Origin: Physcomitrium patens | Lineage: Eukaryota; Streptophyta; Bryopsida; Funariales; Funariaceae | DNA: 64,000 nt | Reading direction: 5' to 3' | NCBI RefSeq assembly: GCF_000002425.4 | Contig: NC_037275.1 | Location: 10,898,533 to 10,962,532, forward strand | Part shown: positions 2,939 to 56,183 of the stretch, in pieces | Numbering within the stretch: the stretch's first letter is position 1 | Layout: the number at the start of each line of letters is the position of its first letter | Notes under the pieces: model-generated | What the model was told of the DNA's origin: nothing | Databases searched by the model: none | The model's input: the letters and a program-made list of their open reading frames with translations, nothing else | Program-made: the position numbers and the translations under genes

Positions 2939-2942
2939 ACGT
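2939..2942. repeat. Target-site duplication of Y1 (left), ACGT
   Basis: ACGT here and ACGT at 14398-14401 flank Y1. H sequence is continuous across one copy of it. Confidence 0.85.
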
Positions 2943-3696
2943 TGTTATATTACGTACTATCTTGCTTAAGAACGCATTGTGTATTTGGCTGTAGGAGGTA
3001 GTATGGTGTTTCGCTAGTATACAAGTAGTCTATCGGGTTCTTGACTACCCAAATACAATCTATAACTGATTACAATGTAAAAGCTTAATTCCAATATAAA
3101 ATGCCTAGAAACCCTATATAACTTCAATTTCTTTTGTTATTTTTATTTTATTTTATTTATTTTATGTTTTTTATTTTATCTTTATCGTTAATTACCTTAA
3201 TCCTAGACCGTGAACTTTGGCAAGCTGTGATCCTTGATCTATCCTTTCGACTTGTTGTGAAACATCTATCGCTAGTGTCTCTACAAGCCCTTTCGAATAC
3301 TCAAGAAGTTCTAGTTCAACCTTGCTTATAGATTGTGAAACTATGCTGCAATTCGCACCGATGTCCCTTAGCCACTCGCCGATATTCCTCTTATCCCTAT
3401 TGGTAGGTCCCCAGTTATTATAGAAACCCTAAACAAACCCCAATTTTCCAATTCTCAATACCTCTTAAAACTGTTGGTAGATATCCTCTATCCGTACAGT
3501 CAGATCAACACAACGACGCATCCATTCAGCATACTCAACCTTCTAGATAATTTTGAATTTCAACCACAGAAGTATCTCTCATTTCATCAACAATCAAGAG
3601 TACTAGCCTTTCCTCTCTTACAAAAAAAATCCAATTCACCAATATAACACTGACTTTTAGCAACGATTGCCTCAATCTTCCCAAAATCCTATGAAG

Positions 3697-3738
<42 letters not shown>

Positions 3739-4340
3739 AATTCTCTATCTTTTTCCGAACATGAAGCTAGCTCTCCGACCCTTAAAACCCTGATTCTTCC
3801 TCTTTTATTTCTTAACCTATCCTCCCCTTTAACCCTGAGGAGTTCCTATTCTTCCACCTTGGACTCCCCGAATTGGAACAGCCGATAGAGCTTTCTCCTC
3901 CATTTTTACCTTTAAGAGATCTTTTTACCGAAAAGACGTTCTCAGAACGGTACAAAGAACGGAACAACCTGAAACAAAATCGAAGCCTGTAATCAGACCA
4001 TATTGGGTTGCCCGACCAAGTCAGGTCTCATATTGGGTAAGAGGCCCATAATAGGACCTGGATTAGAGGTCTTCTGAAATTGGATCCAATAGGCTCTTCG
4101 AACTAGGCTCACCCGTCGTTGAATTGGTCCTTTCCTTTTCTAGTGACTCCTGTTATTGGAATCAAACGGAGCATTTTATTACTAGTGAGTATGCCCCGGC
4201 TGATTGTAACGGGGTGACTGAACCTGGCCTCTCAGTATTTGTACTGGAATTGGCCACCGCTTCTAATATCCAAGGTGACTAAATATTAATAAATCTTCTT
4301 CATTTATATTTTCATCATATAGACGTGTTACAACACGACA
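2943..4340 (-). repeat. Y1 LTR (left; 3' LTR of the minus-strand element)
   Basis: It begins TGTTATATTACG (decayed from TGTCGTATTACG) and ends CAACACGACA. It holds an A39 run at 3697-3735. Length and A-run equal those of its partner LTR, but many CpG sites seen in the partner are TpG or CpA here, for example around 2970-2990. Confidence 0.9.
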
Positions 4341-4344
4341 TCCA

Positions 4345-5638
4345 CCTCCTCTGAACCTGTATATCCTCTGCTATGCACCAATTAACCTAGTTGCCATTTG
4401 ATTCATAATATGTTCTCCAAATCTTCGTCTAGTCCATCTCCACTGTCTCTGCTATTCAAATCAATTTTATCTTCCCATTGCGGAATATCTATGTCTTCAT
4501 TAAGGTCTTCTATATTTATTCATGCATATCTTTGTTTAAACAATTTCACTCTCTTTCCTGTAATTGGTATTTTTAACCTTGTGCCATCTAACTCCCGCAA
4601 TGAATAAGTCGCATTATCATGAACAGTTGTTATTACATACGGTCTAAATCAACGTTATGAAAACTTCCGTAAAGTGCTATATTGGTTGTCAAAACTACTA
4701 TCATAAACAAGTACCCAATCACCTTCTTCAATTGCTTTAGGTCTCAATTAATGTTGCTTATCAAATTGCGCCTTATTTTGTAACCTTGCTCTTTTTAACC
4801 TTTTCAATGCTATCTGCACATCTTCCAATCTTTGCTCCAATTGTCGAATCCTAATAGCCAGAAGTTCTTCTCTTGTCAATCCATCTTCCCATGGTAGCAT
4901 ACTCCAAATAAGTACCCTTTCTTCAATCGACATAATTGGTTTTTGACCTATCATAAGTTCTACTGGCATATATCCTGTCACCAAACTATGTGTTGTTTGA
5001 TCAGTCCATAATGCAAATGACAAAAGTCGTGGCCACTCTCTAACTTTCCCATTACAAGCTTTAACTAATGCTTTCACAATCGGTGGGTGACCACATTCGC
5101 TTTTTGCATTCCCTTCCGGATTATAAGCAGTAGTCAGTGATAGTTTAACTCCACATCTTTCAAAGGACTTACGAGCTTCTTATGCATTTAATTCTCCACG
5201 ATCTGCAGTGATTTTTCCTATGCATCCGTAGTGGCAAATGACATCTTCAAGCAAAAACCTACAAATCTCCTCTATAGATTTTGTCCTCAATGCTCTTCTT
5301 TCTACTTGATTTGATAAATCTTCACGAGCTAAAATCAAATATCTCATCTGCCATAACCCAACTCGCATAATAACCAAATCAACAACCCATTTAAAATGAA
5401 TAGCTAGAGGATACGTAGGATGAAGACCATCTCGATGTCGGATATTAGAATACGATTGACAGATTTCACATGACTCTACAAATGAGAGCACATCTCGATA
5501 CATATTTTTCCACCAATATCGTTCCTTGAGTTTAGCAAAAGTAGCCCAGATTTCTCTATGCCCTACCCATAAACTATCATGAAACTCCTTTAATAATTTT
5601 AGTTTTTCTTCCTTTTTGCCTATCACTCGTTGTGGCAT
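4345..5638 (-). pseudogene. Y1 integrase remnant
   Basis: Read on the minus strand from 5638, the protein has an H-H-C-C zinc-binding domain (HDSLWVGHRE, then CEICQ), then the start of the catalytic core with ADRGE carrying the second catalytic Asp. The core is broken near 5180, and the remaining ORF (4748-5077) carries the end of the core and the C-terminal arm. The equivalent Y2 reading (16387-17331) keeps the late NPEGNAKSERG box with the catalytic Glu. Integrase joins element DNA to the host target. Several stops make this copy inactive. No chromodomain follows. Confidence 0.8.
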
Positions 5639-5740
5639 CCCAATTCTTTTCTTCGGTCTCTTCCATAAAAATCCATCTCGAAGTAAAAATCCATATATTT
5701 TTTTTCTTATATGTTTGAATTTTTTTGTAGATCAATTCCC

Positions 5741-7080
5741 CTACTTAGTCAAGGTATTCAAGTAATGACCAATATCCAATAATTCTCCTTCATAATATTC
5801 TTCAAGAAATAGCTTGTCTTCTCTGTTGAGATTTGATATTGAATAGAATTTCAGTCCGACGTCATCAATATCTTCAACCATTTTGTCCTCCCTCTCGTAT
5901 CTTGCTCGAGATAGCATGTTTGCTACTAAATTGTCCTTCCCAGTAACATGCTTAAATTCTGGATTTAGTGACTTAATATAAGCAATCCATCTCAACATTG
6001 CAATATTTGGCGTTGAATAGTTAGTAATCATTCCAAGCAATGGCAAGCAATCTGTTTCAATTACTACTACTGTCCCAATCAAATAGTCCTTTTCAGCTTT
6101 CATAATCAAAAAAACTCCCCAAAGTTCTCTTTTGACTTGCGAATATGCACGCTGACGAATACTTAAAACTTTAGCTCCAAATCGAACTGCAAATCTATTC
6201 CCACTTGAATCATCTTGACCCACAGCCTATCCAATGGCAATTGGACAAGTGTCCACAGTAAGAATCACTGGTCTATTGCACTTATAATCAACCTTCCTCA
6301 ATATTGGACTTGACATCAATAATTTCTTCAATCTTTGCATTACATGAATATGCCTTTCTTTCCATTTAAATCGATAGCCCTTGCGTAACAGTTCATATAA
6401 TGGATCCACTATATGAGCATAGTAAGGGATCTAGATGCGGTATAATACACATGCACCTAAAAACCTGCAAACCTCTGTTAAAAAATCATAATCCTCTTTC
6501 ATCTTTCTAATTGCATCAACTTTAGTCGGATCTGGTTTTCTTCCGTAAGATCCACATAAATGTCCAACAATCACAACCTCTTGTACTCCAAATACGAACT
6601 TCATACCCGATAATGTAAGATGAACTTCTCCAAGCCGAGTTAAAATCTTTTCACAATCTTGTATATGATCAACAACATATTTGCAACACCCCCTCTTATC
6701 TAAAGTTTCATCCTTGTTTCCTTCTCTGCACCCTTTTATAAGAACATCATCCAGAAAAGGCATAGTCTTTTCCGGAATAAAATCTCTCAATACCTTATTC
6801 ATCCCATTCATCATATGCGCAACTGAGTTAATCATGCCTTGAGGAAGAGTGCACATTCTAACCAATCCAAGTGGTGTCCTCATTGTGGTCATATCTCTAC
6901 TTTCTTCGGCAAGTTGAAATTGATCATAACTTGAATACAAGTCACCCATTGAATAGATCGCCCTTCTTGCAAACGCCTCAACAAATTCATCCACAATAGG
7001 TCCAATTCTTGCATTTTTGACAGTTACTGCATTCACCACTTACATATCTTGAAATAAACCGTAGTGATCCATTCTTCTTA
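5741..7080 (-). pseudogene. Y1 RNase H and C-terminal half of reverse transcriptase
   Basis: On the minus strand, 7039 to 6431 reads as RT fingers/palm with DLYSSYDQFQL, the LPQG box and FLDDV catalytic aspartates near 6745. RNase H follows (6409-5741) with VDT and ETDCLPL. Stops separate the blocks. The N-terminal half of RT lies on the other side of the Y3 solo LTR, from 9766. The RT entry box in the Y2 copy reads IQDMQPMN where most plant Ty3/gypsy RTs have a VDYRxLN-like box, which marks a divergent lineage. Confidence 0.8.
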
Positions 7081-7088
7081 GGTACCGT

Positions 7089-9761
7089 TGTCGTATTACG
7101 TGCTTTCCTGCTTGAGAACGCGCTTGGCGTCTGGCTGTAGAAGGTAGTATGGAGATTCGCCAATAGTCAGGCAGTCTATCAGTTTTTGACTGTTAGAATA
7201 TAAACGATTGCAAGAATACACTGTAAATCTATACGGATGCCCTTCGACTGCTCGCCAAAGTCCTTTTTGTCCTGCCCGGTAGGTCTCTAAACATTACAGA
7301 GAACCTCGAACAACCCAAACTGTTAATCTTCGATACCGCTGTCGTGTTGTGGTTCGGCTACTATATGAAAATAATGTAATTATGTACTTAATATATAATT
7401 TATTAAGTAACATGGTAAGAGCCATGTTAGTATATTTTAGTTGGTTGTAGAATATAATTTGATTATTACTTTGAGAAGAGGGTGTTTAAAAAGATTACTA
7501 TAGAATTTGTATAACTTTAATTTCTTTTTGATAGTGGCTTTTAAGATTGGTTTTGGTTGATAGTAACTTCTAAATATTTAGAGTCACCTTTATTGGACAT
7601 TGGTGACATTTGAAAATTTATTTTTGATTCTTTTATTTGGTGTTTAGAGCATACATTATGTAAATCTTATAAGAAAAAGGATTGAAGAAGGATTTTGGTA
7701 GCAAAGGGAGGAATTAGGCCACCAATATAGATGAATGGAGATGAAAAATAAAAATCTCCATTCCTATTGGTCAAAAATCATGACCAATGGGCTTTGAGGA
7801 GGCTCCCCGAGGCCATATTAGGGATTAGGGTTAGTTTCTCGAGGTCATTCGAACTTTGAAGGCTAGAGTCAGAAGGTTTAGGTTTTTGGATATGGTTTTG
7901 GTGCAAAATTGGTGTCATTTGGGGTTTTTATGAAGAAGTTATAGGCGCTCAAAGTTAAGGTGTAAGTTTTCGACGTACTGTCACTCTTTTGAGCATACCG
8001 CACGCGTACAGACAGCAAACGAGGATCGGCGACCGGATTTGAAGAGAAAACTTTTTCGGCTACAGTTTGTGCATACTGTTTATCGAATTCCAAGCTTTTA
8101 TGAAGGAGATATTGGCAGTTGAAGTCAGAGCTTGATATCTAAGGGTAGTAAGTAGCCCGAATTACTTGTGCTTGTGATTTGAGCTATATCTTAGACAATT
8201 TGATGAGGTTTTAGCTCAAAATTTCCAAGATTGTGTGTAACCTTGTTATAAAGCTTTCTTTATAAGTTTTGTGTGATTTGGAGCTTGGGTTTAAGAGATA
8301 TAAGGAAAATAGTTTTCGGGTGCTTGTAAGTTAGGGTTTTGTGCACCTGCTAGGGTTTCTTAGATGCCGAACGATCGGTGATAGAAGTACGGTTCAATTT
8401 TTTTGTGGTAAAAGTTAAGTATAGCATCTAGCTTATGTAGAAATTTGTAACGAAGTGAACGGTTGAATTAGCTTTTATGAATTTTCAAAGTCTTATGTAA
8501 AAAGGTCTTTGGCGGGAAGAAATATATTTTGAAGAATTTTAAGATATTTTGAAATTTTATACAAAGTAAGGAGTTTGTTTTTGGGAGCTAAGGCATTATA
8601 TAAAAAAGAAACCTAAACTCTCTACAGCTAGATACTCGGTGTATTCCCAGATAGAAAATCACGCCATACGACACCGCTTTGTACTTACAATCTTGTATCC
8701 ACTGACTGTCTTGTTAGATTAACCCAATAAATTTTATTCACTCCGCATACTCAATCCTATAGACACCCTTTTAATTCTTCAATCTCAAACGTAACTCGAT
8801 TTCACTAAACAGTCAAGAGTAATCAAACCCACTTCATTAAAAATCCCGATTCACCATTACAACACTGACTTCAACAACGATTGTCTTAGTCTTCCCAAAA
8901 CCCTATGAAGAAAAAAAACCCAATTCTCTCTCTTCTTTCCCCGCCCGAAGCATAAAGCTCCTCTCCCCCTGATCTTCAAAAACCTCCCAAAAACTTATTC
9001 TCCCCCTAATCTTATCCTCTGAATTTCTTAAATCTTTCGTCTTGGATCCGGAATTGGCTCCCACTGTCAAAGCTTAGATCCGAAATTGGTCCCGCCGTCA
9101 GAGCTTTCTCTTCCATTTTTCTTCTGTTTTTACCTTTAAGAGATCCATTTACCGAAAACAATGTTCCTTGAAATGGCACAGAGAATAGGACAGCCTGAAA
9201 CAGAATCGAAACTCCGTACTCGGGTCCACATTGAGTCGCCCGACCAATTCAGGTCTCATATTGGGTAAGATGCCCGTAGTAACTCGGATGTTCGCGTAAT
9301 TGGGTCAAATTGGTCCTCGCGTCAGATTAGCTAAGAGGCCCATAGTAAGACCTAGATGTTCCCGTAATTGAATCAAATTGGTCCTTCGCGTCAGAGTGGC
9401 TGAGGCCCGTAGTAAGACCTGGATTTTCCCGTAATTAGACTGCATTGGATTGCCCGACCAATACAGGTCTCATATTGGGTAAGAGGACATGGATTGGATT
9501 CTTGAAATTGGATCCAATTGGCTCTTCGAACCAGGCTCACCCGTCGTGTGAATTGGTCCTTTCTCTTCCTGCTGACTCCCGTTATTGGAATCGAACGGAG
9601 CATTTCAGTATGCCCCGGCTGACTGTAACGGGGTGACGGAACCTGGCCACTCAATATTTATATTGGAGTTGGTCGTTGCTCCCAATATTCAAGGTAACTA
9701 AATATTAATAAAAGTCCCCTTTCTTTATATTTTCATGGTATACTCGTGTTACAACACGACA
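7089..9761 (-). mobile_element. Y3: solo LTR of family Y, itself interrupted by X
   Basis: It begins TGTCGTATTACG and ends CAACACGACA, flanked by CCGT at 7085-7088 and 9762-9765. The empty site (one CCGT) is present in Y2 near 19058, inside reverse transcriptase. Without X and its duplicated 4 bp it is 1335 bp, close to the other Y LTRs. No internal region remains, so it is a recombination product (solo LTR). It carries two to three units of a roughly 69-bp minisatellite at 9263-9450. Confidence 0.88.
7340..8673 (+). mobile_element. X: 1334-bp solo LTR of a related family
   Basis: It begins TGTCGTGTTGTGG and ends CCATACGACA, flanked by CCGC at 7336-7339 and 8674-8677. Intact Y LTRs (for example near 15345) show the empty site with one CCGC. 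Apart from the shared TGTCGT/ACGACA ends, its body is unlike Y LTRs. A diverged reverse-strand copy of much of its length lies at about 58300-59400. It has no ORF of note. Confidence 0.82.
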
Positions 9762-9765
9762 CCGT

Positions 9766-10521
9766 AAACCATTGACTAGAATACGACGCAAATGAAGGTT
9801 CTAATATTTTCATCTTCATCTTTTCTTTTAATAGTTCCACCAATTTAGGTAAATGTGCCCTCGGTACTAGAATCGGTCTTAGATTCTAAGGTACATGCAG
9901 TACAGTGAAGATAACCATAGGTGTTATAATATTCGGATCCACACACCCAATTTCATAAGATTCGAAGGCAAATGATCTACCTTGTTTAGCCAACATCTTT
10001 TTGAAGCAAGTAATTTCCTCCGGCAATAAAGAACCATCAGAACCAATCTTCAATTCTTCAAAAGTCTCTTCAATAAATTGATGTCCAATACTCATTGGAT
10101 CTCTTAAAATTGCTTCTTTTGATGCTTCTCCCATTTGTTCCTTAAAATCTTCTGGTAACTGTCCGACAACTGGCTTTACCTTCTTATCTGTCGTTTTATA
10201 TCTCGTCTCTACTGTGACTTTTGGTACTTGAAAAGATTCAAGTATGGTATAAACCTCTCTTGAATGAATCTCAACAATCTTATCATTATCTCCTAACCCA
10301 ATAGATGTAATCAATTCCAATGAATCTTCCAGTCCATTTTCTTCATAAACACCTAAAATCCTCTCATCATCTTGCAATGTACCTAACTTGCATAATTCTC
10401 CTTCAATATTATATAATCTTTTCTTTTCTTTTCTTTTAAAATCATCAACTTTCTTATACATAATATTTCCATTCTCCAAAATACCAATAAAACTCGCATC
10501 AAAGGTACCTTCATCTCGCAA
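9766..10521 (-). pseudogene. Y1 protease-RT linker and start of reverse transcriptase
   Basis: The minus-strand ORF (10521 to 9886) corresponds to the N-terminal 200 or so residues of the Y2 RT ORF at 18345-19775. It includes the segment EEITCFKKMLAKQGRSFAFE and the lead-in to the RT domain, and continues across a stop to 9766, where Y3 interrupts it. It has no function on its own. Confidence 0.75.
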
Positions 10522-10556
10522 GAGTACCTCCTCTTTTGTACCTCCATAATTTCGCT

Positions 10557-11465
10557 TTATGGTGGTACCTCCCCAAAATCCTTAAATCCTTCAACAATCT
10601 TTGGCAATGATTTCTCCCTCAACCTATCTCGATTCCGTTTATAGTTAGGAGGTACTGTTAGAAATTGTACAGCTTTCCTCCCATCTTTGCTACATACCCT
10701 TACATAAGCAAAACCATCATCAAGTACTTTTGTTTCCATCCGTGTTGCCGTAATATAAGGTTGTCCTAAAATCAACGGCTAAGACGTTGTATCTTGAACA
10801 AAGAAATGTTGTTCGGTCACAACATCTCCAATCCGAATTTTGACATCTGGACAAGCTCCATATAATTCGCCCCATGTGTTATTAGCTGCTCGTATTGCCC
10901 ATCTATGTTCTATATCAATTGGCCATTTTTGCTTCTTATAAAGATCTTTAGACATGAGATTTATTTCAAAACCATGGTCGACTAAAGCAACAATTGGTTC
11001 TTCTATATCTACAACTTTCACCAATACCTCAATAGTTGCCCTTGCCCAATACTTTTGAATATAATGGCTCAAAGTTCCCATTTCCTTATCACTATAATCT
11101 TCAAAATGTACTCGTTGATTATACCCATTCTTTTCATTTGTTGGTTGCTTGTAACCAATATCAACCTCTTCTTCTTCATTATATATTCTTGCATCAATAG
11201 TATGACTCATTCGAGTTTCACCCATTAATTGCCTCTTTCGCTTAATACTGTCAATGATAACATCATGAAATTCCTTCATTGCAATTCCCAAGACTTCTTT
11301 CAATGTGAATTCCACCTTAGCGTTTAATATACGTTCTTCCAACACCCCTTTCAAATTTGTTGCCCCTTCAATATCAGAAAGTAGCTTATAAGCAATTGAT
11401 TTGCCTTTATCTGTTGTGTCCATTGTTTTTTCTCCCAATGATGCTGAGGTATCCTTTACAGGCAA
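10557..11465 (-). pseudogene. Y1 aspartic protease region
   Basis: Two minus-strand ORFs (11465-10779 and 10775-10557, separated by a stop) cover a gag-pol linker and a retropepsin-like domain. The catalytic triplet reads D-H-G (10971-10979, within ALVDHGFEINLMS) where retropepsins normally have D-S/T-G. The downstream ILGQPYI matches the second conserved block. The protease would cut Gag-Pol. The same DHG is present in Y2, so it is probably a lineage feature rather than decay. Confidence 0.7.
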
Positions 11466-11498
11466 TTCTTGTGAAGCTGCCTCCCGAGCCTTGTCTCC

Positions 11499-12767
11499 TC
11501 AAGTTTGCCTCTTAAAAGAATTTCCTTCTCTAGTATCATCAAAATTTCCTCGTCTTTTTTCTTCCATCAAAGCTTCATGTTGGCTCTTAGCAATATATGC
11601 ATGAACTGAAAGAGACTCAACAGAATCCTCCCAACCTGTTCTACCTTGTATTGTAGCTGCAGTTCTCAATAACGCTTCTCGAGGTAATTTCCCTTCTTGC
11701 ATTGTAGAAACGGCAGAAGCCCAAAACTCACTAGTTTCCGTACTTCCACCAATTTCATCATCTACTCTAGCACCATAACTTGCACTTTCTCATGCTGCTG
11801 TTTCATGCTCTTTTAAGTAATCTTGAATCAATGCTCTCATTCTTTCCTTGCCAAAATTGGTTTGAGGAAGATCCTTTCTATCTTTTAATGCTATCTTCCC
11901 ATCTTTTTAGCGAATAATTCCTTGCCGTATCATATTATTAAATTCATTGCAATCTTTCCTAGTGTTTGAAGCGTCATCACACCAAATGCATCTTTGTACA
12001 TATCCTTGTTTTGAAACATTCTTCAAATTATTTGTAGAAGTATTCTCTTCAAGTCTTACTAATTTGATTTGAAGATCTCGCATTCCTCAAATAATTTCTT
12101 TCATGTCCATATCTGTTTTCTTTGATAAGAATGTCGAAGATTGAACTGTAGGCATTGTTGGTGGTGTTGTACGTACTGGAGCTTTGGGTGCTTGTACTAT
12201 TTTCGGAATATTGCTCCTATCCTTCCGCCTTTCTCTTTTTGTAAGCAACTCCACCGCATCTTCAACGTTCTTCCACTTTGTTGTCAATCCTTCATTTTCT
12301 TCTTTGTCTTCAAGAAGGAGTTCCAATTTCCCTTACAATTCTCCATCAACAGCTTGAAGAAATAGATCAACTTTATTTGGCTCCAATGTCAATTTTTCTA
12401 CCTTCGACAATTGAGAGTACTACCTCTTAAATTCTCTTAGTAGCTCTGTTGCTTACAAATTCTTATTAGGTTATTCAATCCATTCCGGAAATAGCTTCTT
12501 AGTAACGCGATCAGCATCTTCCAAGAAATATTCGTCTTTCAATGCATGTAAAAAAACCTCCCATGAATTCCCATAACGATCCGTAATCGATGTAATATGG
12601 TCTCTTATCTTCAGTATCATGGCAAGTCCAAATAATTCAACCATTTTCTTCTCTAAAACCTGATTTAATTCCATTTCACGAACATAACATCTTAAATACC
12701 TTGAAATATTCCTTCCATCAAATTGATCAATTTTATTGAGCACTGCTTGCAATGCTTTGGTTGCCAA
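11499..12767 (-). pseudogene. Y1 gag remnant
   Basis: Broken minus-strand ORFs (12767-12471, 12326-12087, 11702-11499) cover capsid-like and linker sequence matching Y2 gag at 20795-22225. The zinc knuckle near 11965-12000 reads C-I-W-C with the later His position changed to Asn, so the metal site is lost. A further stretch up to 12974 probably belongs to the leader and first gag codons. Confidence 0.7.
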
Positions 12768-12977
12768 AGCTTCTTTTCAATCATTACTTTGTTATTGCTG
12801 CATTGATAATGAGAAGACTTGAAATATACTAACAATAGATGGATCTACGTACATACCTTCTATTTTAGTAGAACCCCCACTAAAAACTCCTCCCAAAGAT
12901 CCTTCAAAATTTTTATTTTCGTTCTCTATAAAAATAAAAATAAAATATAACGAAATCCATACCTTCCACCTCAAGCT

Positions 12978-12995
12978 TTCACATTGGATTTACCA
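12978..12995 (-). other. Y1 primer-binding site (decayed tRNA-Trp type)
   Basis: This is the counterpart of the Y2 site at 22274-22291, with four transitions, two of them at its CpG positions. It lies four bases from the LTR. Confidence 0.7.
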
Positions 12996-12999
12996 CTTA

Positions 13000-13752
13000 T
13001 GTCGTATTACGTCCTATCTTGCTTGAGAACGTGCCCGGCGTTTGGCTGTAGGAGGTAGTATGGTGTTTCGCTAGTACACAAGTAGTCTATCGGGTTCTTG
13101 ACTACCCAAATACAATCTATATCCGATTGCAATGTAAAAGCTTAATTCCAATATAAAATACCTAAAAACCCTATATAACTTCAATTTCTTTTGTTATTTT
13201 TATTTTATTTTATTTATTTTATGTTTTTTATTTTATCTTTATCGTTAATGATCTTAATCCTAGACCGTGAACTTTGGTAAGCTGTGATCCTTGATCTATC
13301 CTTCTGACTTGTTATGAAATATCTTTCGCTAGTGTCTCTACAAGCCCTTTCGAATGCTCAAGAAGTTCTAGTTCAACCCCGCTTACAGATTGTGAGGTTA
13401 TGCTGCAATCCGCACCGATGTCCCTTAGCCGCTCGTCGATATTCCTCTTATCCCTATTGGTAGGTCCCCAGTTATTATAGAAACCCTAAACAAACCCCAA
13501 TTTGCCAACTCTCAATACTTCTTTAAACTGTTGGCACATATCCTCTATTCGTACAGTCAGATCAACACAACCACGCATGCATTCAGCATACTCAACCTTC
13601 TAAACAATTCTGAATTTCAACCACAGAAGTATCTCCCATTTCATCAACAATTAAGAGTACTAGCCTATCTCTCTTACAAAAAAAATCTAGTTCACCAATA
13701 TAACACTGACTTTTAGCAACGATTGCCTCAATCTTCCCCAAATCCTATGAAG

Positions 13753-13794
<42 letters not shown>

Positions 13795-14397
13795 AATTCT
13801 CTATCTTTTTCCGAACATGAAGCTAGCTCTCCGACCCTTAAAAACCCTGATTCTCGCCCTTTTATTTCTTAACCTATCCTCCTCTTTAACCCTGAGAAGT
13901 TCCTATTCTTCCACCTTGGACTCCCCGAATTGGAACAGCCGATAGAGCTTTCTCCTCCATTTTTACCTTTAAGAGATCTTTTTACCGAAAAGACGTTCTC
14001 AGAACGGTACAAAAAACGGAACAACCTGAAACAAAATCGAAGCCCGTAATCAAACCATATTGGGTTGCCCGACCAAGTCAGGTCTCATATTGGGTAAGAG
14101 GCCCATAATAGGACCTGGATTAGAGGTCTTCTGAAATTGGATCCAATTGGCTCTTCGAACTAGGCTCACCTGTCGATGAATTGGTCCTTTCCCTTTCTGT
14201 TAACTCCCGTTATTGGAATCGAACGGAGCATTTTGTTACTAGTGAGTATGCCCCGGCTGATTGTAACGGGGTGACTGAACCTGACCTCTCAGTATTTGTA
14301 CTGGAATTGGCCACCGCTTCTAATATCCAAGGTCACTAAATATTAATAAATCTTCTTCATTTATATTTTCATCATATAGACGTATTACAACACGACA
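13000..14397 (-). repeat. Y1 LTR (right; 5' LTR of the minus-strand element)
   Basis: It begins TGTCGTATTACG and ends CAACACGACA. It is 1398 bp with an A39 run at 13753-13791, the same length and run as the left LTR. Confidence 0.9.
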
Positions 14398-14401
14398 ACG
14401 T
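14398..14401. repeat. Target-site duplication of Y1 (right), ACGT
   Basis: Matches 2939-2942. Confidence 0.85.
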
Positions 14402-15092
14402 AAGCTTAGAAGGACAAAGTACAACTATTTTATATATGATCGAGAGCAATTAGCAATTATACAGGCTACAAAGATATGACAATACTATCTATTAGTGAAG
14501 CTAGTAGTTGATTCTTACTACATGATTTGTATTTGAAAAATATAAAATCACGACATCATCGTTGAAAAGAACAATTATAGTTTTTTGATATCTAGCTTGA
14601 GTATAAGCAAGGGTGACAACATATTCTTCCAAACAGCTTATTGTAGAATCTAGATTTAAAGGACAAATTGAGAGACAAGGCAGAAGTTGCTACCATTAGT
14701 AGTGTCATTTCAAATTTAACCAAAGAGGCAAAATGGAAGGAAATTATGCATTGGAATGCTTATTTTAAGATGGTTAGCAATCAGTTAAAAGTGGACAATA
14801 TATAATATTAAGATTATAGTCTTAGTGATAGCTTCGTCTCTTTTAAGATGTAGATTTATGTAACCAACAATACTATATTCTAAATATGTATACTTCAACA
14901 GGGACATGACATTCCAATATTTGGACATTTCGAATGAAAAAAGACTCTAAAACAGATCTCAAAGATATGGTTTTTGGCAGATTTGGATTATGATGTTCAA
15001 GCCTTTGTATGTTCTTGTAAGTCATCTCAATATAACAAAGCATGTAACACAACGTCCTCTAGACTATTGCAATCAATTTTATTACCTACAAC
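14402..15092 (+). pseudogene. H RNase H end and integrase zinc-binding domain
   Basis: Directly after the Y1 target duplication the plus strand continues the H RNase H, with YDREQLAIIQA, in frame with sequence before 2943. At 14905-15090 an integrase zinc-binding module is readable: a HDIPIFGH-like start, then DVQAFVCSCKSSQ, where the two Cys of the second pair are partly kept. Stops are frequent. The integrase core resumes at 23668 after Y2. Confidence 0.7.
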
Positions 15093-15096
15093 ACGT
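15093..15096. repeat. Target-site duplication of Y2 (left), ACGT
   Basis: Matches ACGT at 23664-23667. Confidence 0.85.
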
Positions 15097-16324
15097 TGTC
15101 GTATTACGTGCTTTCCTGCTCGAGAACGCGCCGGGCGTCTGGCTGTAGAAGGTAGTATGGAGATTCGCCGATAGTCAAGCAGTCTATCAGTTTTGACTGC
15201 TGGAATATAAACGACTGCAACAATGTATCGTAAATCTATACGGATGCTCTTCGATTGCTTGTCGAAGTCCTTTTTACCCCAGCCGGTAGGTCTCTAGACG
15301 TTACAGAGAACCCCGAACAACCCAAACTGTTAATCTTCAATACCGCTTTGTACTTACAATCTTGTATCCACTGACTGTCTTGTTAGATTAACCCAATAAA
15401 TTTCATTCATTCCGCATACTCAATCCTATAGACACCCTTTTAATCCTTCAATCACAGACGTAACTCGATTTTAGCAAACAGTCAAGAGTATTCAAACCCA
15501 CTTCATTAAAAATCTCGATTCATCATTACAATACTGACTTCAGCAGCGATTGCCTCAGTCTTCCCAAAACTCTACGAAGAAGAAAAATCCAAATTCTATG
15601 TCTTTCCTTCTCCGACCCGAAGCATGAAGCTCTTTTTCTCTAATCCCCTTGATCTTCAAAAACCTCCAATGAAAACCGAACTAGTAACCTTGTAAAAGCT
15701 TGAAACTAGCTCCTCCCGATTCCCAGAGAAAAAAAAACCCCCTCCCTGATCTCTGATCTGAAAAAAAAAAAAAAAAAAAACCCTCCTTCAAAACTATATC
15801 CCCCCTAACCTTATCCTCTGAATTTCTTCAATCTTCCGTCTTAGATCCGGAATTGGCTCCCATCGTCAAGCTTGGATCCAAAATTGGCTCTCGCCATCAG
15901 AGCTTTCTCCTCCATTTTTACCTTTAAGAAATCCATTTACTGAAAACAACGTTCCTTGAAACGGCTTAGAGAACAGGACAGCCCGAAACAGAATCGAACC
16001 CCGTAATCGGGACTACATTGAGTCGCCCGACCAATTCAGGTCTCATATTGGATAAGAGGACCCAGATTGGATTCTCGAAATTGGATCCAATTGGCTCTTC
16101 GAACCCGTCGTGTGAATTGGTCCTTCTCTTCCTGTTGACTCCTGTTATTGGAATCGAATGGAGCATTTCAGTATGCCCCGGCTGAGTGTAACGGAATGAC
16201 TGAACTTGACCACTCAGTATTTGTACTGGAGTTGGTCGATGCTCCCAATATTCGAGGTAATTGAATATTAATAAAATTCCCCTTTCTTTTTATTTTCACT
16301 GTATACTCATGTTACAACACAACA
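15097..16324 (-). repeat. Y2 LTR (left; 3' LTR)
   Basis: It begins TGTCGTATTACG and ends ACAACACAACA (a CpG of the usual ACGACA end is now CpA). It is 1228 bp, 139 bp shorter than its partner because one minisatellite segment is absent near 16055. Confidence 0.9.
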
Positions 16325-16386
16325 TCCACCTCCTCTGAACCTGTGCATCCTCCGGTATGCACCAATTTACCCAATTGCTGTTTGAT

Positions 16387-17331
16387 TCAGAATATATCCT
16401 CTACGTCTTTGTCCAGTTCGTCTTCGTCACCTTCATTATCCAAATCACTTTCATCTTCTTGCTGCGGAATCTCTATACCTTCATTAAGGTCTTCCATATT
16501 CATCTCTGCGTGTCTTCGTTTAAATATTTTTACTCGCTTCCCTGCAATTGGTATTTTCAATTTTGTACCATCTAACTCTCGTAATGAGTAAGTCGCATTA
16601 CCATGAACAGTTGTTACCACATATGGTCCAAACCAACATTTTGAGAATTTCCGCAAAGTACTATGTTGATTATCCAGACTATTGTCATAAACAAGTACCC
16701 AGTCACCTTCCTCGATTACTTTTGGTCTCAATCGATGTTGCTTATCGAATCGTGCCTTGTTTTGTAACCTTGCTCTTTTTAACCTTCCCAATGCTATCTG
16801 GACATCTTCCGTTCTTTGCTCCAATTGTCGAATCCTAATAGCCAGAAGTTCTTCTCTTGTCAATCCATCTTCCCATGGTAGCATACTCCAAGTAAGTACC
16901 TTTTCTTCAATCGGCATAATTGGTTTTTGACCTATCATAAGTTCTACTGGCATATATCCTGTCACCGAACTATGTGTTGTTCGATCAGCCCATAATGCAA
17001 ATGACAAAAGTCGTGGCCACTCTCTAACTTTCCCATTACAAGTTTTAACTAATGCTTTCACAATCAGCGGGTGACCACGTTCGCTTTTTGCATTCCCTTC
17101 TGGATTATAAGTAGTAGTCAGTGATAGTTTAACTCCACATCTTTCAAAGAACTTACGAGTTTCTTGTACATTTAATTCTCCACGATCTGCAGTGATTTTT
17201 CCTACGCATCCGTAACGGCAAATGACATCTTCAAGTAAAAACCTACAAATCCCCTCTATAGATTTTGTCCTCAATGCTCTTCTTTCTACTTGATTTGATA
17301 AATCTTCATGAGCTAAAACCAAATATCTCAT
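16387..17331 (-). pseudogene. Y2 integrase core and C-terminus
   Basis: A 314-codon minus-strand ORF. ITADRGE holds the second catalytic Asp at about residue 50, and the Glu sits in NPEGNAKSERG about 35 residues later. The C-terminal arm has GDWVLVYDNSL and FGPYVV, the usual DNA-binding fold of Ty3/gypsy integrases. It ends in an acidic tail (DESDLDNEGDEDELDKDVED). The first catalytic Asp (WVVDLV) lies just upstream in the ORF at 17335-18024, separated by a stop and frameshift at 17331-17340. The element's CG-centred insertions would be made by this enzyme when intact. Confidence 0.85.
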
Positions 17332-17334
17332 CTG

Positions 17335-18024
17335 TCATAACCCAACCAGTATAATAACCAAATCAACAACCCATTTAAAATGAATAGCTAGAGGATACGT
17401 AGGATGAAGACCATCTCGATGTCGGATATTAGAATACGATTGACAGATTTCACATGACTCTACAAATGAGAGCACATCTCGATACATATTTTTCCACCAA
17501 TATCGTTCCTTGAGTTTAGCAAAAGTAGCCCAGATTCCTCTATGCCCTGCCCATAAACTATCATGAAACCCCTTTAATAATTTTAGTTTTTCTTCCTTTT
17601 TGCCTATCACTCGCTGTGGCATCCCAATTCCTTTCTTCGGTCTCTTCCATAAGAATCCATCTCGAAGTAAAAATCCATATGCTTTTTTTCTTATTTGTTT
17701 GAATTTTTTTGTAGGCCAATTTCCCTGCTTAGTCAAGGTATTCAAGTAATGACCAATATCCAATAATTCTCCTTCATAAGATTCTTCAAGAAATAGCTTG
17801 TCTTCTCTGTTGAGATTTGATATTGAATAGAATTTCAATCCGACATCATCAATGTCTTCAACCATTTTGTCCTCCCTCTCGTATCTTGCTCGAGATAGCA
17901 TGTCTGCTACTAAATTGTCATTCCCAGTAACATGCTTAAATTCTGGATTTAGTGACTTAATATAAGCAATCCATTTCAACATTGCAATATCTAGCGTTGA
18001 ACAGTTAATAATCATTCCAAGCAA
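17335..18024 (-). pseudogene. Y2 RNase H end and integrase zinc-binding domain
   Basis: A 229-codon minus-strand ORF. The first part (LKWIAYIKSLNPEFKHVTGNDNLVADMLSR, abridged here) is the end of RNase H. The H-H-C-C module follows with HDSLWAGHRG and CEICQ, then WVVDLV with the first catalytic Asp of integrase. It overlaps the upstream RNase H ORF by a frameshift at about 18012-18024. Confidence 0.82.
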
Positions 18025-18314
18025 TCTGTTTCAATTACTACTACTGCCCCAATCAAATAGTCCTTTTCAGCTTTCATAGCCGAAACGACTCCCCAAAGTT
18101 CTCTTTTGACTTGCGAATATGCACGCTGACGAAAACTTAAAACTTTAGCCCCAAATCGAACTGCAAATCTACTCCCATTTGAATCATCTTGACCCACAGC
18201 CCATCCAATGGCAATTAGACTAGCGTCCACAGTAAGAATCACTGGTCTATTGCACTTATAATCGACCTTCCTCAATATTGGAGGTGACATCAATAATTTC
18301 TTCAATCTTTGCAT
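18012..18314 (-). pseudogene. Y2 RNase H
   Basis: A 100-codon ORF with TVDASLIAIGWAVGQ (first catalytic Asp) and ELWGVVSAMKAEKDY (Glu region), then ETDC (third Asp). It is joined to RT through a short stop-containing gap at 18315-18344. Confidence 0.8.
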
Positions 18315-18344
18315 TGCATGAATATGCCTTTCTTCTCATTTAAA

Positions 18345-19775
18345 TCAATAACCCTTGCATAACAGTTCATATAATGGATCTGCTATGTGAGCAAAATAAG
18401 GGATCCAGATTCGATAAAATACACATGCACCCAAAAACATGCGAACCTCTGTTAAAGAATCACAATCCTCTTTCATCCTTCTAATTGCATCAACTTTAGT
18501 CGGATCTAGTTTTCTTCCATAAGATCCACATAAATGTCCAACAATTACAACCTCTCGTACTCCAAATACGGACTTCATATCCGATAATGTAAGATGAACT
18601 TCTCCAAGCCGAGTTAAAATCTTTTCACAATCTTGTATATGATCAACAACATATCTGTGACACCCCCTCGTATCTAAAGTTTCATCCTTGTCTCCTTCTC
18701 TGCACCCTTTTATAGGAACATCATCCAGAAAAGGCATAGTCTTTTCCGGAATAAAATCTCTCAATATCTTATTCATCCCATTCATCATATGCGCAACTGA
18801 GTTAGTCGCGCCTTGAGGAAGAGTGCACATTTTAACCAATCTAAGCAGTGTCCTCATCGTGGTCATATCTCTACTTCCTTCGGCAAGTTGAAATTGATCA
18901 TAACCTGAATACAAGTCATCCATTGAATAGATCGCCCTTCCTGCAAACGCCTCAACAAATTTATCCACAATAGGTCCAATTCCTGCATTTTTGACAGTTA
19001 CTGCATTCATCGGTTGCATATCTTGAATAAACTGTAGTGACCCATTCTTCTTAGGTACCGTAAACCATCGACTAGAATACGACGCAAATGAAGGTTCTAA
19101 TATTTTCATCTTTATCTTTTCTTTCAATAGTTCGACCAATTTAGGTAAATGTGCCCTCGGTACTGGAATCGGTCTTAGATTCCAAGGTACATGCGGTACA
19201 GTGAAGATAACCATAGGTGTTATAATATTCAGATCCACACACCCAATTTCATAAGATTCGAAGGCAAACGATCTACCTTGTTTAGCCAACATCTTTTTGA
19301 AGCAAGTAATTTCCTCCGGCAATAAAGAACCATCAGAACCAATCTTCAATTCTTCAAAAGTCTCTTCAATAAACTGATGTCCAATACTCATTGGATCTCT
19401 TAAACTTGCTTCTTTTGATGCTTCTCCCATTTGTTCCTTAAAATCTTCTGGTAATGGTCCGGCAACAGGCTTTACCTTCTTATTTGCCGTTTTATATCTC
19501 GTCTCTACTGTGACTTCTAGTGCTTGAAAAGATTCAAGTATGGTATAAACCTCTCTCGAATGAATCTCAACAATCTTATCATTATCCCCTAATCCAATAG
19601 ATGTAATCAATTCCAATGAATCTTCTAGTCCATTTTCTTCATAAACACCCAAAATCCTCTCATCATCTTGCAATGTACCTATCTTGCGTAATTGTCCTTC
19701 AATATTATATAATCTTTTTCTTTCTTTTCTTTTAAAATCATCAACTTTCTTATAGATAATATTTCCATTCTCCAA
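18345..19775 (-). pseudogene. Y2 reverse transcriptase
   Basis: A 476-codon minus-strand ORF and the longest retroelement frame in the window. The first 190 or so residues are a linker. RT follows with PKKNGSLQFIQDMQPMN, DLYSGYDQFQL, LPQGATNSVAHMMN and the catalytic FLDDV (near 18718-18732). The DMQPMN entry box replaces the common DYRxLN. I recall similar RTs from retroelements of fungi and some early land plants, but this was not checked. The enzyme copies RNA to DNA from the tRNA primer at 22274-22291. The ORF opens at 19775 and the true gag-pol start lies further upstream. Confidence 0.87.
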
Positions 19776-19852
19776 TATACCAATAAAACTCGAATTAAAG
19801 GCACCTTCATCTCGCGAGAGTACCTCCTCTTTTGTACCTCCATAATCTCGCT

Positions 19853-20761
19853 TTACAGTGGTACCTCCCCAAAATCCTTAAATCCTTCAACAATCTTTGG
19901 CAATGGTTTCTCCTTCAACCTATCTCGATTCCGTTCATGGTTAGGAGGTACTGTTAGAAATTGTACAGCTTTCCTCCCATCTTCGCTCCGTACCCTTGCA
20001 TAAGTAGAACCATCGTCAAGTACTTTTGTTTCCATCCGTGTTGCCATGATATAAGGTTGTCCTAAAATCAACGGATAAGACGTTGTATCTTGAACGAAGA
20101 AATGTTGCTCCGTCGTAACATCCCCAATCCGAATTTTGACATCTGGACAAGCTCCATATAATTCGCCCCATGTGTTATTAGCTGCTCGTATTGCCCATCC
20201 ATGTTCCATATCAATTGGTCATTTTTGCTTCTTATAAAGATCTTTAAACATGAGATTTATTTCAGAACCATGGTCCACCAAGGCAACTATTGGTTCTTCT
20301 ATATCTCCTACCTTCACCAATACCTCAGTAGTTGCCCTTGTCCAATGCTTTCGAGTATAATGGCTCAAAGTTTCCATTTCCTTGTCACTAAAATCTTAGA
20401 AATGTACTCGTTGATTATACCCATTCTTTTCATTTGTTGGTTGCTTGTAACCAATATCAACCTCTTCTTCATCTCTACATATTCTTACATCAATAGCATG
20501 ACTCATTCGAGTTTCGCCCATTAATTACCTCTTTCGCTTAATACTGTCAATGATAACATCATGAAATTTCTTCTTTGCAATTCCTAAGACTTCTTTCAAT
20601 GTGAATTCCACCTTAGCGTTTAATATACGTTCTTCCAACACCCCTTTCAAATTTGTTGCCCCTTCAATGTCAGAAAGTAGCTTATAAGTAATTGATTTGC
20701 CCTTATCTTTTGTCTCCATTGTTTTTTCTCCCAATGATGCTGAGGTATCCTTTACAGGCAA
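19853..20761 (-). pseudogene. Y2 aspartic protease and gag-pol linker
   Basis: The minus-strand frame is broken near 20210 and 20524 by stops. The retropepsin-like triplet is D-H-G at 20267-20275 (VALVDHGSEINLM). Further blocks are EHGWAIRAANNT and YPLILGQPYI. The upstream piece (20761-20525) starts MPVKDTSASLGEKT and is the linker after gag. The protease would mature Gag-Pol. His in place of Ser/Thr at the middle triplet position is shared with Y1. Confidence 0.75.
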
Positions 20762-20794
20762 TTCTTGTGAAGCTGCCTCCCGAGCCTTGTCTCC

Positions 20795-22225
20795 TCAAGT
20801 TTGCCTCTTAAAAGAATTTCCTTCTCTAGTATCATCAAAATTTCCTCGTCTTTTTTCTTCCATCAAAGCTTCATGTTGGCTCTTAGCAATATATGCATGA
20901 ACTGAAAGAGACTCAACAGGATCCTCCCAACCAGTTCTTCCTAGTATTGTAGCTACAGTTCTCAATAACACTTCTCGAGGTAATTTCCCTTCTTGTATTG
21001 CAGAAACGGCAGAAGCCCAAAACTCACTAGTTTCCGTACTTCCACCAATTTCATCATCTACTCTAGCACCATAACTTGCACTTTCTCGTGCTACTGTTTC
21101 ATGCTCTTTTAAGTAATCTTGAATCAATGCTCTCATTCCTCCCTTGCCAAAATTGGTTTGAAGAAGATCCTCCCTATCTTTCAATGCTATCTTTCCATCT
21201 TTCCAGCAAATAATTCCCTGCCGTATCATATTAGTAAATTCATTGCAATCTTTTCTAGTGTGTGAAGCATCATCACACTAAATACATCTTTGTACATATC
21301 TTTGTTTTGAAACATTCTTCGAATTGTTTATAGAAGTATTCTCTTCAAGTCTTGCCAATTTGATTTGAAGATCTCGCATTCCTTGTATAATTTCTTCCAT
21401 ACCCATATCTGCTTTCTTTGACAAGGATGTCGAAGGTTGAACTGTAGGCATTGATGGTGGTGTTGTACGTACTGGAGCTTTGGGTGCTTGTACTGTTTTC
21501 GGAATATTGCTCCTATCCTTCCTCCTTTCTTTTTTTGTAAGCAACCCCATCGTATCTTCAACGTTCTTCCACTTCGTTGTCAATCCTTCATCTTCTTCTT
21601 TGTCTTCAAGAAGGGGTTCTAATTTCTCTTGCAATTCTCCATGAGCAGCTTGAAGAAATAGATCAACTTTGTTCGGCTCCAATGTCAATTTTTCTACCTT
21701 CGACAATTGAGAGTACTACCTCTCAAATTCCCTTAGTAGCTTTGTTGCTTGCAAATTCTTATTGGGCCGTTCAATCCATCCCAGAAACAGCTTCTTAGTA
21801 ACGCAATCAGCATCTTCCAAGAAATATTCATCTTTCAATGCATGTGAAAAATCCTCCCATTAATTCCCATAACGATCCATAATCGATGTAATGTGGTCTC
21901 TTATCTCTGGTATCGTGGTAAGTCCAAATAGTGCAACCATTTTCTTCTCAAAAACCCGATTTAATTCCATTTCACGAACATAACATCTTAAATACCTTGA
22001 AATATTCCTCCCATCAAATTGATCAATTTTATTGACAACTGCTTGCAATGCTTTGGTTGCCAAAGCTTCCTTTCGATCATTGCTTTGCTGTTGCTGTATT
22101 GACAATGAGAAGGCTTGAAACAAACTAGCAATAGATGGATCCATGTGCATACCTTGTCCTTTAGAAGACTCTCCACCAGAAACTCCTCCCAAAAATCCTT
22201 CAAAATTTTTATTTTCGTTTTCCAT
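20795..22225 (-). pseudogene. Y2 gag
   Basis: Minus-strand ORFs at 22225-21860, 21706-21278 and 21229-20795 cover gag. The first starts MENENKNFEGFLGG, a likely true start because it follows the leader 50-70 bp inside the LTR. A helical capsid-like part follows, then a basic, proline-rich linker. The zinc knuckle lies at about 21261-21300, CCHC-type (C-x2-C-x4-H-x4-C) with all four ligands kept but a stop codon between the first two Cys. A frameshifted gap lies at 21707-21859. Confidence 0.75.
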
Positions 22226-22273
22226 AAAATAAAGATAAAATCAACCAAAATCCAACACCTTCTACCTCAAGCT

Positions 22274-22291
22274 TTCACGTCGGGTTCACCA
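22274..22291 (-). other. Y2 primer-binding site, matches tRNA-Trp 3' end
   Basis: Read on the minus strand, TGGTGAACCCGACGTGAA begins with TGG (complement of CCA) and equals the reverse complement of the 3' 18 bases of plant cytosolic tRNA-Trp as I remember it (...TTCACGTCGGGTTCACCA). It lies five bases inside the LTR at 22297. Confidence 0.75.
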
Positions 22292-22296
22292 CTTTT

Positions 22297-23663
22297 TATC
22301 GTATTACGTGCTTTCCTGCTCGAGAACATGCCGGGCGTTTGGCTGTAGAAGGTAGTATGGAGATTCGCCGATAGTCAAGCAGTCTATCAGTTTTGACTGT
22401 TGGAATATAAACGACTGCAACAATGTACCGTAAATCTATATGGATGCTCTTCGACTGCTTGTCGAAGTCCTTTTTGTCCCAGCCGGTAGGTCTCTAGACG
22501 CTACAGAGAACCCCGAACAACCCAAACTATTAATCTTCAATACCGCTTTGTACTTACGATCTTGTATCCGTTGACTGTCTTGTTAGATTAACCCAATAAA
22601 TTTCATTCACTCCGCATATTCAATCCTATAGACAGCCTTTTAATCCTTCAATCACAGACGTAACTCGATTTCACAAAACAGTCAAGAGTATTCAAATCCA
22701 CTTCATTAAAAATCTCGATTCACCATTACAATACTGACTTCAGCAGCGATTGCCTCAGTCTTCCCAAAACTCTACGAAGAAGAAAAATCCAAATTCTATG
22801 TCTTTCCTTCCCCGACCCGAAGCATGAAGCTCTTTTTCTCTAATCCCCTTGATCTTCAAAAACCTCCAATGAAAACCGAACTAGTAACCTTGCAAAAGCT
22901 TGAAACTAGCTCCTCCCGATTCCCAGAGAAAAAAAAAACCCCTCCCTGATCTCTGATCTGAAAAAAAAAAAAAAAAAAAAAAAAACCCTCCTTCAAAACT
23001 ATATCCCCCCTAACCTTATCCTCTGAATTTCTTCAATCTTCCGTCTTAGATCCGGAATTGGCTCCCATCGTCAAGCTTGGATCCGAAATTGGCTCTCGCC
23101 GTCAGAGCTTTCTCCTCCGTTTTTATCTTTAAGAAATCCATTTACTGAAAACAACGTTCCCTGAAACGGCACAGAGAACAGGACAGCCCGAAACAGAATC
23201 GAACCCCGTAATCGGGACTACATTGAGTCGCCCGACCAATTCAGGTCTCATATTGGATAAGAGTCCAGTAGTAATCTGGATGTTCCCGTAATTGGGTCAA
23301 ATTGGTCCTCGCGTCGGATTGGCTAAGACCCGTAGTAAGACCTGGATTTCCCATAATTGGGTTGACCGGCCAATTCAGGTCTCATATTGGATAAGAGGAC
23401 CCGGATTGGATTCTCGAAATTGGATCCAATTGGCTCTTCAAACCCGTCGTGTGAATTGGTCCTTCTCTTCCTGCTGACTCCCGTTATTGGAATCGAATGG
23501 AGCATTTCAGTATGCCCCGGCTGACTGTAACGGAATGACTGAACTTGACCACTCAGTATTTGTACTGGAGTTGGTCGATGCTCCCAATATTCGAGGTAAT
23601 TGAATATTAATAAAATTCCCCTTTCTTTTTATTTTCACTGTATACTTGTGTTACAACACGACA
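22297..23663 (-). repeat. Y2 LTR (right; 5' LTR)
   Basis: It begins TATCGTATTACG (one base off TGTCGT) and ends CAACACGACA. It is 1367 bp, with the extra 139-bp minisatellite segment at about 23262-23400 lacking in the left LTR. The flanking ACGT is at 23664-23667. Confidence 0.9.
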
Positions 23664-23667
23664 ACGT

Positions 23668-28965: not shown

Positions 28966-29039
28966 TGTTATATTATGTGGTGTTGCTTAAAAGTGCACTA
29001 GGCACTTTGTTGTAAAAAGTAGAATAGAAATTGTAATAA

Positions 29040-29790
29040 AAAATCTTAATTCTAATAAAATTCTAAATAAACTCTAATTAAACCTTAATAATACTAAATA
29101 AGCTTTAATTAAATTCAAAAAAAACCTTAAAGAAATTACAAAAGAAACAATAAGAAATCTTAAAAGAATTGAAAAAAAATCCATGATAAATTTTAAAAGA
29201 ATCTTTAATAAGCTCTAAAAAATATTAAAATAATCACAATTATATCTTAAATAAATTTCAATCAAGTTCTAATTTAATCCTAGTTGAAATCCTAATAGAC
29301 TTCAATGAAATCCTAGACAAATTCTAAATCCTAAACTGAACTCTAGATCAAACCTTAAATCCTAAATCAAACCCTAAATCAAATCCTAGACAAGCTATAA
29401 ATCCTAAACCAATTCTTAAATCAAATCCTAGACAAATCCTAAATCCTAAATCAAATCCTAGATCAAATCCTAGATTCTAAATTAAATCCTAAATCAAACC
29501 TTAGACTCTAAATCAAATCTTCAATTAAATCCTAGATAAATCCTAAATCCTAAAATACATCCTAAATCAAACCTTAGACAAATCTTAAATCTTAAATCAA
29601 ATCTTTGATCAAATCCTAGACCATAAATTAAACTCTAAATCAAACTCTAAATAAATCCTAAATCAAATCCAAGATCAAATCCTAAATCAAATCCTAAATC
29701 AAATCCTAAATCAAATCCTAAACAAATCCTAAAACCCAAACTAAATCCTAGATCAAACTCTAGATCTGAAACTAAACCTTAACCCTATTC
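29040..29790. repeat. Degenerate tandem array, CAAATCCTAAAT type
   Basis: About 750 bp of short direct repeats around AAATCCTAAATC / CTAGATCAA. The most regular part is (CAAATCCTAAAT)n at about 29684-29726. It is close to the plant telomere repeat CCCTAAA with C to T changes, and several exact AACCCTAAA units occur. Confidence 0.75.

Positions 29791-54608: not shown

Positions 54609-56183
<1,575 letters not shown>

What the first reader, a model, noticed from the sequence alone, without database searches (positions are those of the whole stretch)
2939..23667. LTR elements with CG-centred 4-bp target duplications
Four insertions have readable target duplications: ACGT (Y1), ACGT (Y2), CCGT (Y3), CCGC (X). 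All are 4 bp with CG in the middle. For CCGT and CCGC the unoccupied site exists in a sister copy in the window (near 19058 and 15345), so the CG was present before insertion. Ty3/gypsy integrases usually make 5-bp (sometimes 4-bp) duplications with weak sequence preference. Hits on CG in AT-rich, apparently CpG-poor element H suggest real target choice, perhaps for CpG-containing or methylated DNA. W (ATAG/ATGG) could be a decayed ACGG. Four sites is a small sample.
Basis: partly seen in the sequence, partly recalled or inferred. Interest (0 to 1): 0.75.

Follow-up and report, generated by a model that had tools for sequence, protein, structure and literature searches.

The report
Moss retrotransposons that target CG sites
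These look like ordinary members of a moss retrotransposon group whose integrase inserts almost only where the DNA reads N-C-G-N; the preference is real and very strict, but it was already reported in 2019.

Summary
Four insertions (Y1, Y2, Y3, X) carry exact 4-bp duplications ACGT, ACGT, CCGT, CCGC, and unoccupied CCGT and CCGC sites exist in sister copies. Genome-wide the rule is strict. Of 2,890 exact left ends, 1,193 are internal junctions by motif; of the other 1,697, 1,341 (79%) have CG in place. In the first 100 listed places, all 63 non-internal flanks are CG (54) or the CpG-decay products TG/CA (9). In 20 copies of sister family X, 33 of 34 outer flanks are CG or TG/CA. A chromodomain retrotransposon of the same genome has CG there in 20 of 1,613 places. 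The preference is MCGK, with no clear signal outside the 4 bp. The integrase lacks a chromodomain; the host is inferred to be Physcomitrium patens. This matches the Phygy clade, for which Neumann et al. 2019 (PMC6317226) already state "an insertion preference to NCGN". Added here: the strictness, the decay explanation, the same-genome control, a second family, liverwort relatives, and a candidate contact residue. Whether methylated CG is preferred is untested.

The parts
2939..2942 (.). ACGT, left target duplication of Y1
2943..14397 (-). Y1, full-length Ty3/gypsy element (LTRs 2943-4340 and 13000-14397), interrupted by Y3
14398..14401 (.). ACGT, right target duplication of Y1
7085..7088 (.). 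CCGT, left target duplication of Y3
7089..9761 (-). Y3, solo LTR in the internal region of Y1, interrupted by X
9762..9765 (.). CCGT, right target duplication of Y3
7336..7339 (.). CCGC, left target duplication of X
7340..8673 (+). X, solo LTR of a sister family inside Y3 (the integrase core of an X copy elsewhere is 73% identical to Y2's over 290 residues)
8674..8677 (.). CCGC, right target duplication of X
15093..15096 (.). ACGT, left target duplication of Y2
15097..23663 (-). Y2, full-length element (LTRs 15097-16324 and 22297-23663)
23664..23667 (.). ACGT, right target duplication of Y2
16387..17334 (-). integrase catalytic part and SH3-like C-terminal part of Y2 (both below Pfam cut-off); stop codon about 60 bases from the LTR, no chromodomain hit
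17335..18030 (-). ORF of Y2 with the integrase zinc-binding (H2C2) domain
18345..19877 (-). reverse transcriptase ORF of Y2
19058..19061 (.). CCGT, unoccupied site in Y2 matching the Y3 insertion point
15343..15346 (.). CCGC, unoccupied site matching the X insertion point (also 22543-22546)
28966..30849 (.). probable W of the finding: CpG-depleted LTR-like stretch flanked by ATAG/ATGG; kinship to Y not shown beyond its ends

Best explanation
Y1, Y2, Y3 and X are members of the Phygy clade of non-chromodomain Ty3/gypsy retrotransposons in the moss Physcomitrium patens. Their integrase joins the two LTR ends to target DNA with a 4-bp stagger and accepts almost only sites whose two central bases are C-G, preferably MCGK. 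Filling of the gaps then leaves NCGN on both sides. Shown: the 4-bp duplication, the CG centre, that CG was there before insertion in two cases in the window, that the rule holds genome-wide for Y and in a sample of the sister family X, and that a chromodomain family in the same genome lacks it. Inferred: the host name, the clade placement, and that the integrase itself reads the site. The pattern is the retroviral rule for 4-bp staggers (flexible pyrimidine-purine step in the centre, T disfavoured at the first position and A at the last) narrowed to CG. A base contact may come from the acidic residue that stands where foamy virus integrase has Ala188.
For: 1,341 of 1,697 outer left ends have CG. 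All 63 outer flanks among the first 100 listed places are CG or TG/CA. 72 of 79 distinct flanks are CG, the other 7 TG/CA, with no clear signal outside the 4 bp. X: 33 of 34 outer flanks are CG or TG/CA, and 13 of 14 paired duplications fit decay from CG. Control 20 of 1,613. Empty sites. No Chromo hit in six ORFs with E up to 5 asked for. Nearest solved structures by sequence are foamy virus integrase, E 1e-5, and Ty3, E 0.0013. Central YR preference and T/A avoidance for 4-bp staggers (PMC4422553, abstract and section 6). NCGN for Phygy in print.
Against: 356 of the 1,697 genome-wide are neither CG nor the internal motif and were not read one by one; only nine of that kind were. One X copy has CCCT on the left and ATGC on the right. 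Clade membership was not tested on a tree with Phygy references, and the host name is inferred. A host tether that prefers CG DNA would give the same flanks. The acidic residue is a single aligned column and no test of function.
Confidence: 0.8

Rival explanations
1. The integrase, or a partner that it carries, selects methylated CG, so that the element homes to silenced DNA without a chromodomain.
For: In P. patens methylation lies in TEs and only about 0.5% of methylated cytosines lie in genes (PMC6453930, passages). Flank DNA outside Phygy-like sequence is CpG-depleted (observed/expected 0.54, 60,790 bases), unlike three long ORFs in the window, 0.74-0.88. TG/CA decay of duplications fits methylated surroundings after insertion.
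Against: Decay after insertion says nothing of the state before it. Loss of insertions in genes by selection gives the same bias. No methyl-CpG-binding, CXXC or SRA domain was hit in the ORFs scanned.
Confidence: 0.15
2. CG-centred sites only appear preferred because insertions elsewhere were removed, or because the elements sit in CG-rich DNA.
For: Y1 and Y2 DNA is richer in CG (2.4 and 2.85 per 100 bases) than four non-coding AT-rich stretches of the window (0.22-1.1).
Against: CG is only 1.67% of steps in the flanks next to the sites, and a chromodomain family in the same genome has CG in 20 of 1,613. I know of no selection that would spare only NCGN.
Confidence: 0.03
3. The CG belongs to the element's own ends, and the true duplication is shorter or absent.
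For: The LTR ends themselves hold CG near the tips (TGTCGT...ACGACA).
Against: Unoccupied sites hold the whole CCGT or CCGC once. The outer bases vary between copies, while the two sides of one solo LTR are identical in 7 of 12 pairs and differ by one base in the other 5.
Confidence: 0.01

Closest known systems
Phygy clade (non-chromovirus Ty3/gypsy, P. patens; Neumann et al. 2019, PMC6317226)
   Same: No chromodomain, rather short element, NCGN preference; 4-bp duplication most common according to PMC6911290; host probably the same
   Different: No tested feature differs. The source calls the clade species-specific; integrase relatives named from liverworts were found here
Tcn1-type chromovirus (RLG1 of P. 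patens, as labelled in the literature)
   Same: Ty3/gypsy, very abundant in the same genome
   Different: Chromodomain present. The chromodomain family sampled here has no CG preference, and Thr stands where Phygy has Glu in the two copies where the motif was found. That this family is RLG1 or Tcn1-type was not tested
ZAM of Drosophila (PMC2527525, abstract read)
   Same: LTR element whose integrase targets a CG-rich sequence, CGCGCg, with direct DNA binding in vitro
   Different: Longer motif; kinship was not compared here
Prototype foamy virus and MLV integrases (PMC4422553)
   Same: 4-bp stagger, flexible pyrimidine-purine centre, T disfavoured at the first and A at the last position
   Different: The four retroviruses have a mild preference (YR on average 63% above random); here it is almost absolute and for CG only

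Membership tests
Phygy | Ty3/gypsy pol with reverse transcriptase, RNase H and H2C2 integrase | tested here: met
   RVT_1, RT_RNaseH, Integrase_H2C2 over cut-off in Y1 or Y2 ORFs; rve only weak, E 0.012
Phygy | no chromodomain | tested here: met
   no Chromo hit in six ORFs with E up to 5 asked for (the filters drop most above 0.1); integrase stop about 60 bases from the LTR
Phygy | 4-bp duplication | tested here: met
Phygy | insertion preference NCGN | tested here: met
Phygy | short element, polyprotein spanning nearly the whole internal part | tested here: inconclusive
   Y2 is 8.6 kb, internal part 6.0 kb; the coding region is split into several ORFs
Phygy | placement in the Phygy branch of RT/RH/INT trees | not tested
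   reference sequences not at hand
Phygy | host Physcomitrium patens | tested here: inconclusive
   470 Mb in 101 contigs; species name inferred from this, from the plant-like ORFs (recalled labels) and from the element itself
Tcn1-type chromovirus (RLG1) | chromodomain after the integrase | tested here: not met

The most novel reading that the evidence does not exclude
The Phygy integrase reads methylated CG directly, through an acidic residue at the foamy-virus Ala188 position. It thereby steers new copies into young, silenced, still CG-rich transposons, a DNA-level route to heterochromatin that needs no chromodomain and is shared by moss and liverwort relatives.
Probability: 0.12. Interest if true: 0.75.

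Novelty: already known. Interest (0 to 1): 0.35.

Why it matters
The preference is in print as one clause, but its strictness makes it a clean natural case of base-specific target choice by a retrovirus-like integrase. A CG requirement alone would bias insertion per base towards young transposon DNA (2.2-2.9 CG per 100 bases in Y1, Y2, X) and away from decayed DNA (0.22-0.51 in three AT-rich stretches, 1.1 in a fourth). It would bias it towards exons too (3.9-5.7 in three ORFs), where selection would remove it. That is an alternative or supplement to chromodomain steering for the build-up of nested islands, and it can be tested in a moss with methylation mutants.

Tried and rejected
Reading Y as RLG1 (my first guess, notebook entry) was dropped: RLG1 is described with a chromodomain (PMC7466625, passages) and Y shows none. 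CG as part of the element's ends was dropped because of the empty sites. A scan of viral contigs for relatives of the integrase ORF found none, so the target sites of the liverwort and metagenome relatives could not be read. I did not use structure prediction. I did not measure the duplication length of the chromodomain control family: in the six loci fetched, no LTR showed two flanks that I could take as outer. The labels of two window ORFs and the species name rest on recall or inference. Neumann's additional files, which list duplications, were not read.

Full report
Anatomy. The region 2939-23667 holds two full-length Ty3/gypsy elements with ORFs on the minus strand (Y1, Y2), a solo LTR (Y3) inside Y1, and a solo LTR of a sister family (X) inside Y3. 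Duplications are ACGT, ACGT, CCGT and CCGC. The unoccupied sites for Y3 and X are present in Y2 and its LTRs with the same four bases. ORFs of Y1 and Y2 match reverse transcriptase, RNase H and the integrase zinc-binding domain over cut-off; the catalytic and SH3-like parts match only weakly by Pfam, E 0.012 and 0.029. phmmer finds foamy virus integrase (E 1e-5) and Ty3 (E 0.0013) among solved structures. No chromodomain hit was found in six ORFs, and the integrase ORF ends about 60 bases before the LTR.

Genome-wide test, Y. The window's genome has 470 Mb in 101 contigs. A 31-base left-end pattern with up to 2 mismatches occurs 6,373 times. The exact 19-base left end occurs 2,890 times. It is preceded by CG at the two central duplication positions in 1,341 and by the internal-junction motif in 1,193, so 1,341 of the other 1,697 (79%) have CG. 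The remaining 356 were not all read and may include variant internal junctions. Among the first 100 listed places (all on contig C1), 54 are CG, 37 internal, and nine neither (tally checked). The nine read ACAT four times, ATGG, CTGG, ATGC, TTGT and TTGG. That is 63 of 63 CG or one step of CpG decay. Several share flanks (a cluster near 1.9-2.4 Mb on C1), so they are not all independent.

Distinct flanks. From the 68 loci then held and the window, after collapsing identical flanks, 32 left and 47 right outer flanks remained. Internal junctions were removed by motif, on the left with one mismatch allowed, which could also drop a true outer flank. Central bases: 72 CG, 3 TG, 4 CA, nothing else. 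The flanking DNA has 25 CG in 1,501 steps. First base of the duplication, both strands pooled over the 72 CG flanks: A 73, C 46, G 15, T 10, giving MCGK. Beyond the 4 bp the largest chi-square over 20 offsets was 9.9 with 3 degrees of freedom, so no clear signal. Twelve LTRs had two outer flanks: ten CG/CG and two CG/TG; seven have identical 4-mers, five differ by one base. Three of the twelve (L023, L026, L033) look like copies of one insertion.

Sister family X. Twenty of the 40 listed X copies were read. Left: 18 outer flanks (2 internal by their purine tract), 13 CG, 4 TG/CA, 1 other (CCCT). Right: the end was found in 17 of 20, one of them presumed internal; of 16 outer flanks 7 are CG and 9 TG/CA. 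Of 14 pairs, 5 are CG/CG, 6 CG/decayed, 2 decayed on both sides, and 1 does not match (CCCT/ATGC). With a per-copy decay of 10 in 26 fitted to the 13 matching pairs, 4.9, 6.2 and 1.9 are expected (hand arithmetic). So the TG/CA cases are what decay of CG targets would leave. An X copy's integrase core is 73% identical to Y2's over 290 residues.

Control. A chromodomain family of the same genome was located and its LTR ends read from four loci. Its exact 18-base right end occurs 1,613 times and is followed by NCG in 20. Part of the 1,613 are internal junctions, how many was not counted. Ten flanks that I took as outer have no central CG (by eye). The preference therefore belongs to the element, not to the genome.

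Prior work. Neumann et al. 2019 (PMC6317226; passages read) define Phygy as a P. [quoted passage not shown] Jedlicka et al. 2019 (PMC6911290; section 8 and passages) report 4-bp TSDs as most common for Phygy and GC-rich central dinucleotides in pooled 4-bp TSDs. A search for NCGN with retrotransposon found two papers, one of them Neumann. So the phenomenon is known. The nine paper searches listed nothing whose title or abstract start treats its strictness or mechanism; they cover only the held open-access papers, and their lists were capped.

Mechanism. For retroviruses with 4-bp staggers, integration favours flexible YR steps in the centre and disfavours T at the first and A at the last duplication position (PMC4422553; abstract and section 6). 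Phygy's MCGK is that rule narrowed to CG. The abstract names foamy virus Ala188 as a base contact. In the phmmer alignment, if the solved chain carries three extra N-terminal residues (my reading of its length and recalled numbering), Ala188 stands opposite Glu53 of the ORF at 16387-17334. This column is Glu in 13 and Asp in 1 of the 14 aligned sequences that have a letter there; the 15th has a gap. It is Glu in the X copy read, and Thr in the two of four chromodomain loci where the motif was found. This is a lead, not a test. ZAM of Drosophila is a precedent for an integrase that targets CGCGCg and binds it directly in vitro (PMC2527525, abstract).

Methylation. P. patens methylation lies in TEs and is segregated from genes (PMC6453930, passages). 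Of 80 flanks, 17 adjoin sequence like the window's Phygy copies; flank DNA outside such matches has CpG observed/expected 0.54. This fits insertion into methylated DNA but equally fits survival there. The question stays open.

Distribution. The integrase ORF has 246 relatives in the protein database, 120 listed. Those of the 120 that carry an organism name are from Riccia sorocarpa, Riccia fluitans or Calypogeia fissa, 50-77% identical over half or more of the query. Riccia sorocarpa and Calypogeia fissa are liverworts. The integrase lineage is thus wider than one moss. Their target sites could not be read here.

Noticed in passing
window 28966-30849: Probably very old LTR-like stretch W with ends like Y (TGTTATATTATG...CATGACA), 2 CG in 1,884 bases, flanks ATAG/ATGG, and internal repeats near 29276-29779.
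   Followed up: partly
L022, L027, L029, L031, L032 and L023, L026, L030, L033 (C1, about 1.9-2.4 Mb): Several LTR loci share the same flanks (agaattACGG, gttgatACGG/ATGG/ACGA), which points to copying of a larger segment that holds one insertion.
   Followed up: no
window 26927-27884 / 61926-62868 and 31312-32563 / 63989-62752: AT-rich repeats about 74% alike, in stretches almost without CG (observed/expected 0.14 and 0.18).
   Followed up: no
window 16387-17334: Integrase relatives named from the liverworts Riccia and Calypogeia, many on contigs of tens of Mb, although the clade has been called specific to one moss.
   Followed up: partly
window 54609-56183 and 50113-51198: Long ORFs that look like a plastid diaminopimelate decarboxylase and a BYPASS1-like protein (labels recalled, not searched); CpG observed/expected 0.88 and 0.86.
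   Followed up: no
window 10779-11498: ORF of Y1 with matches to DUF4100 and TUDOR below the curated cut-offs.
   Followed up: no
window 58297-59398: Minus-strand remnant about 75% like part of the X LTR, without a readable left end.
   Followed up: partly
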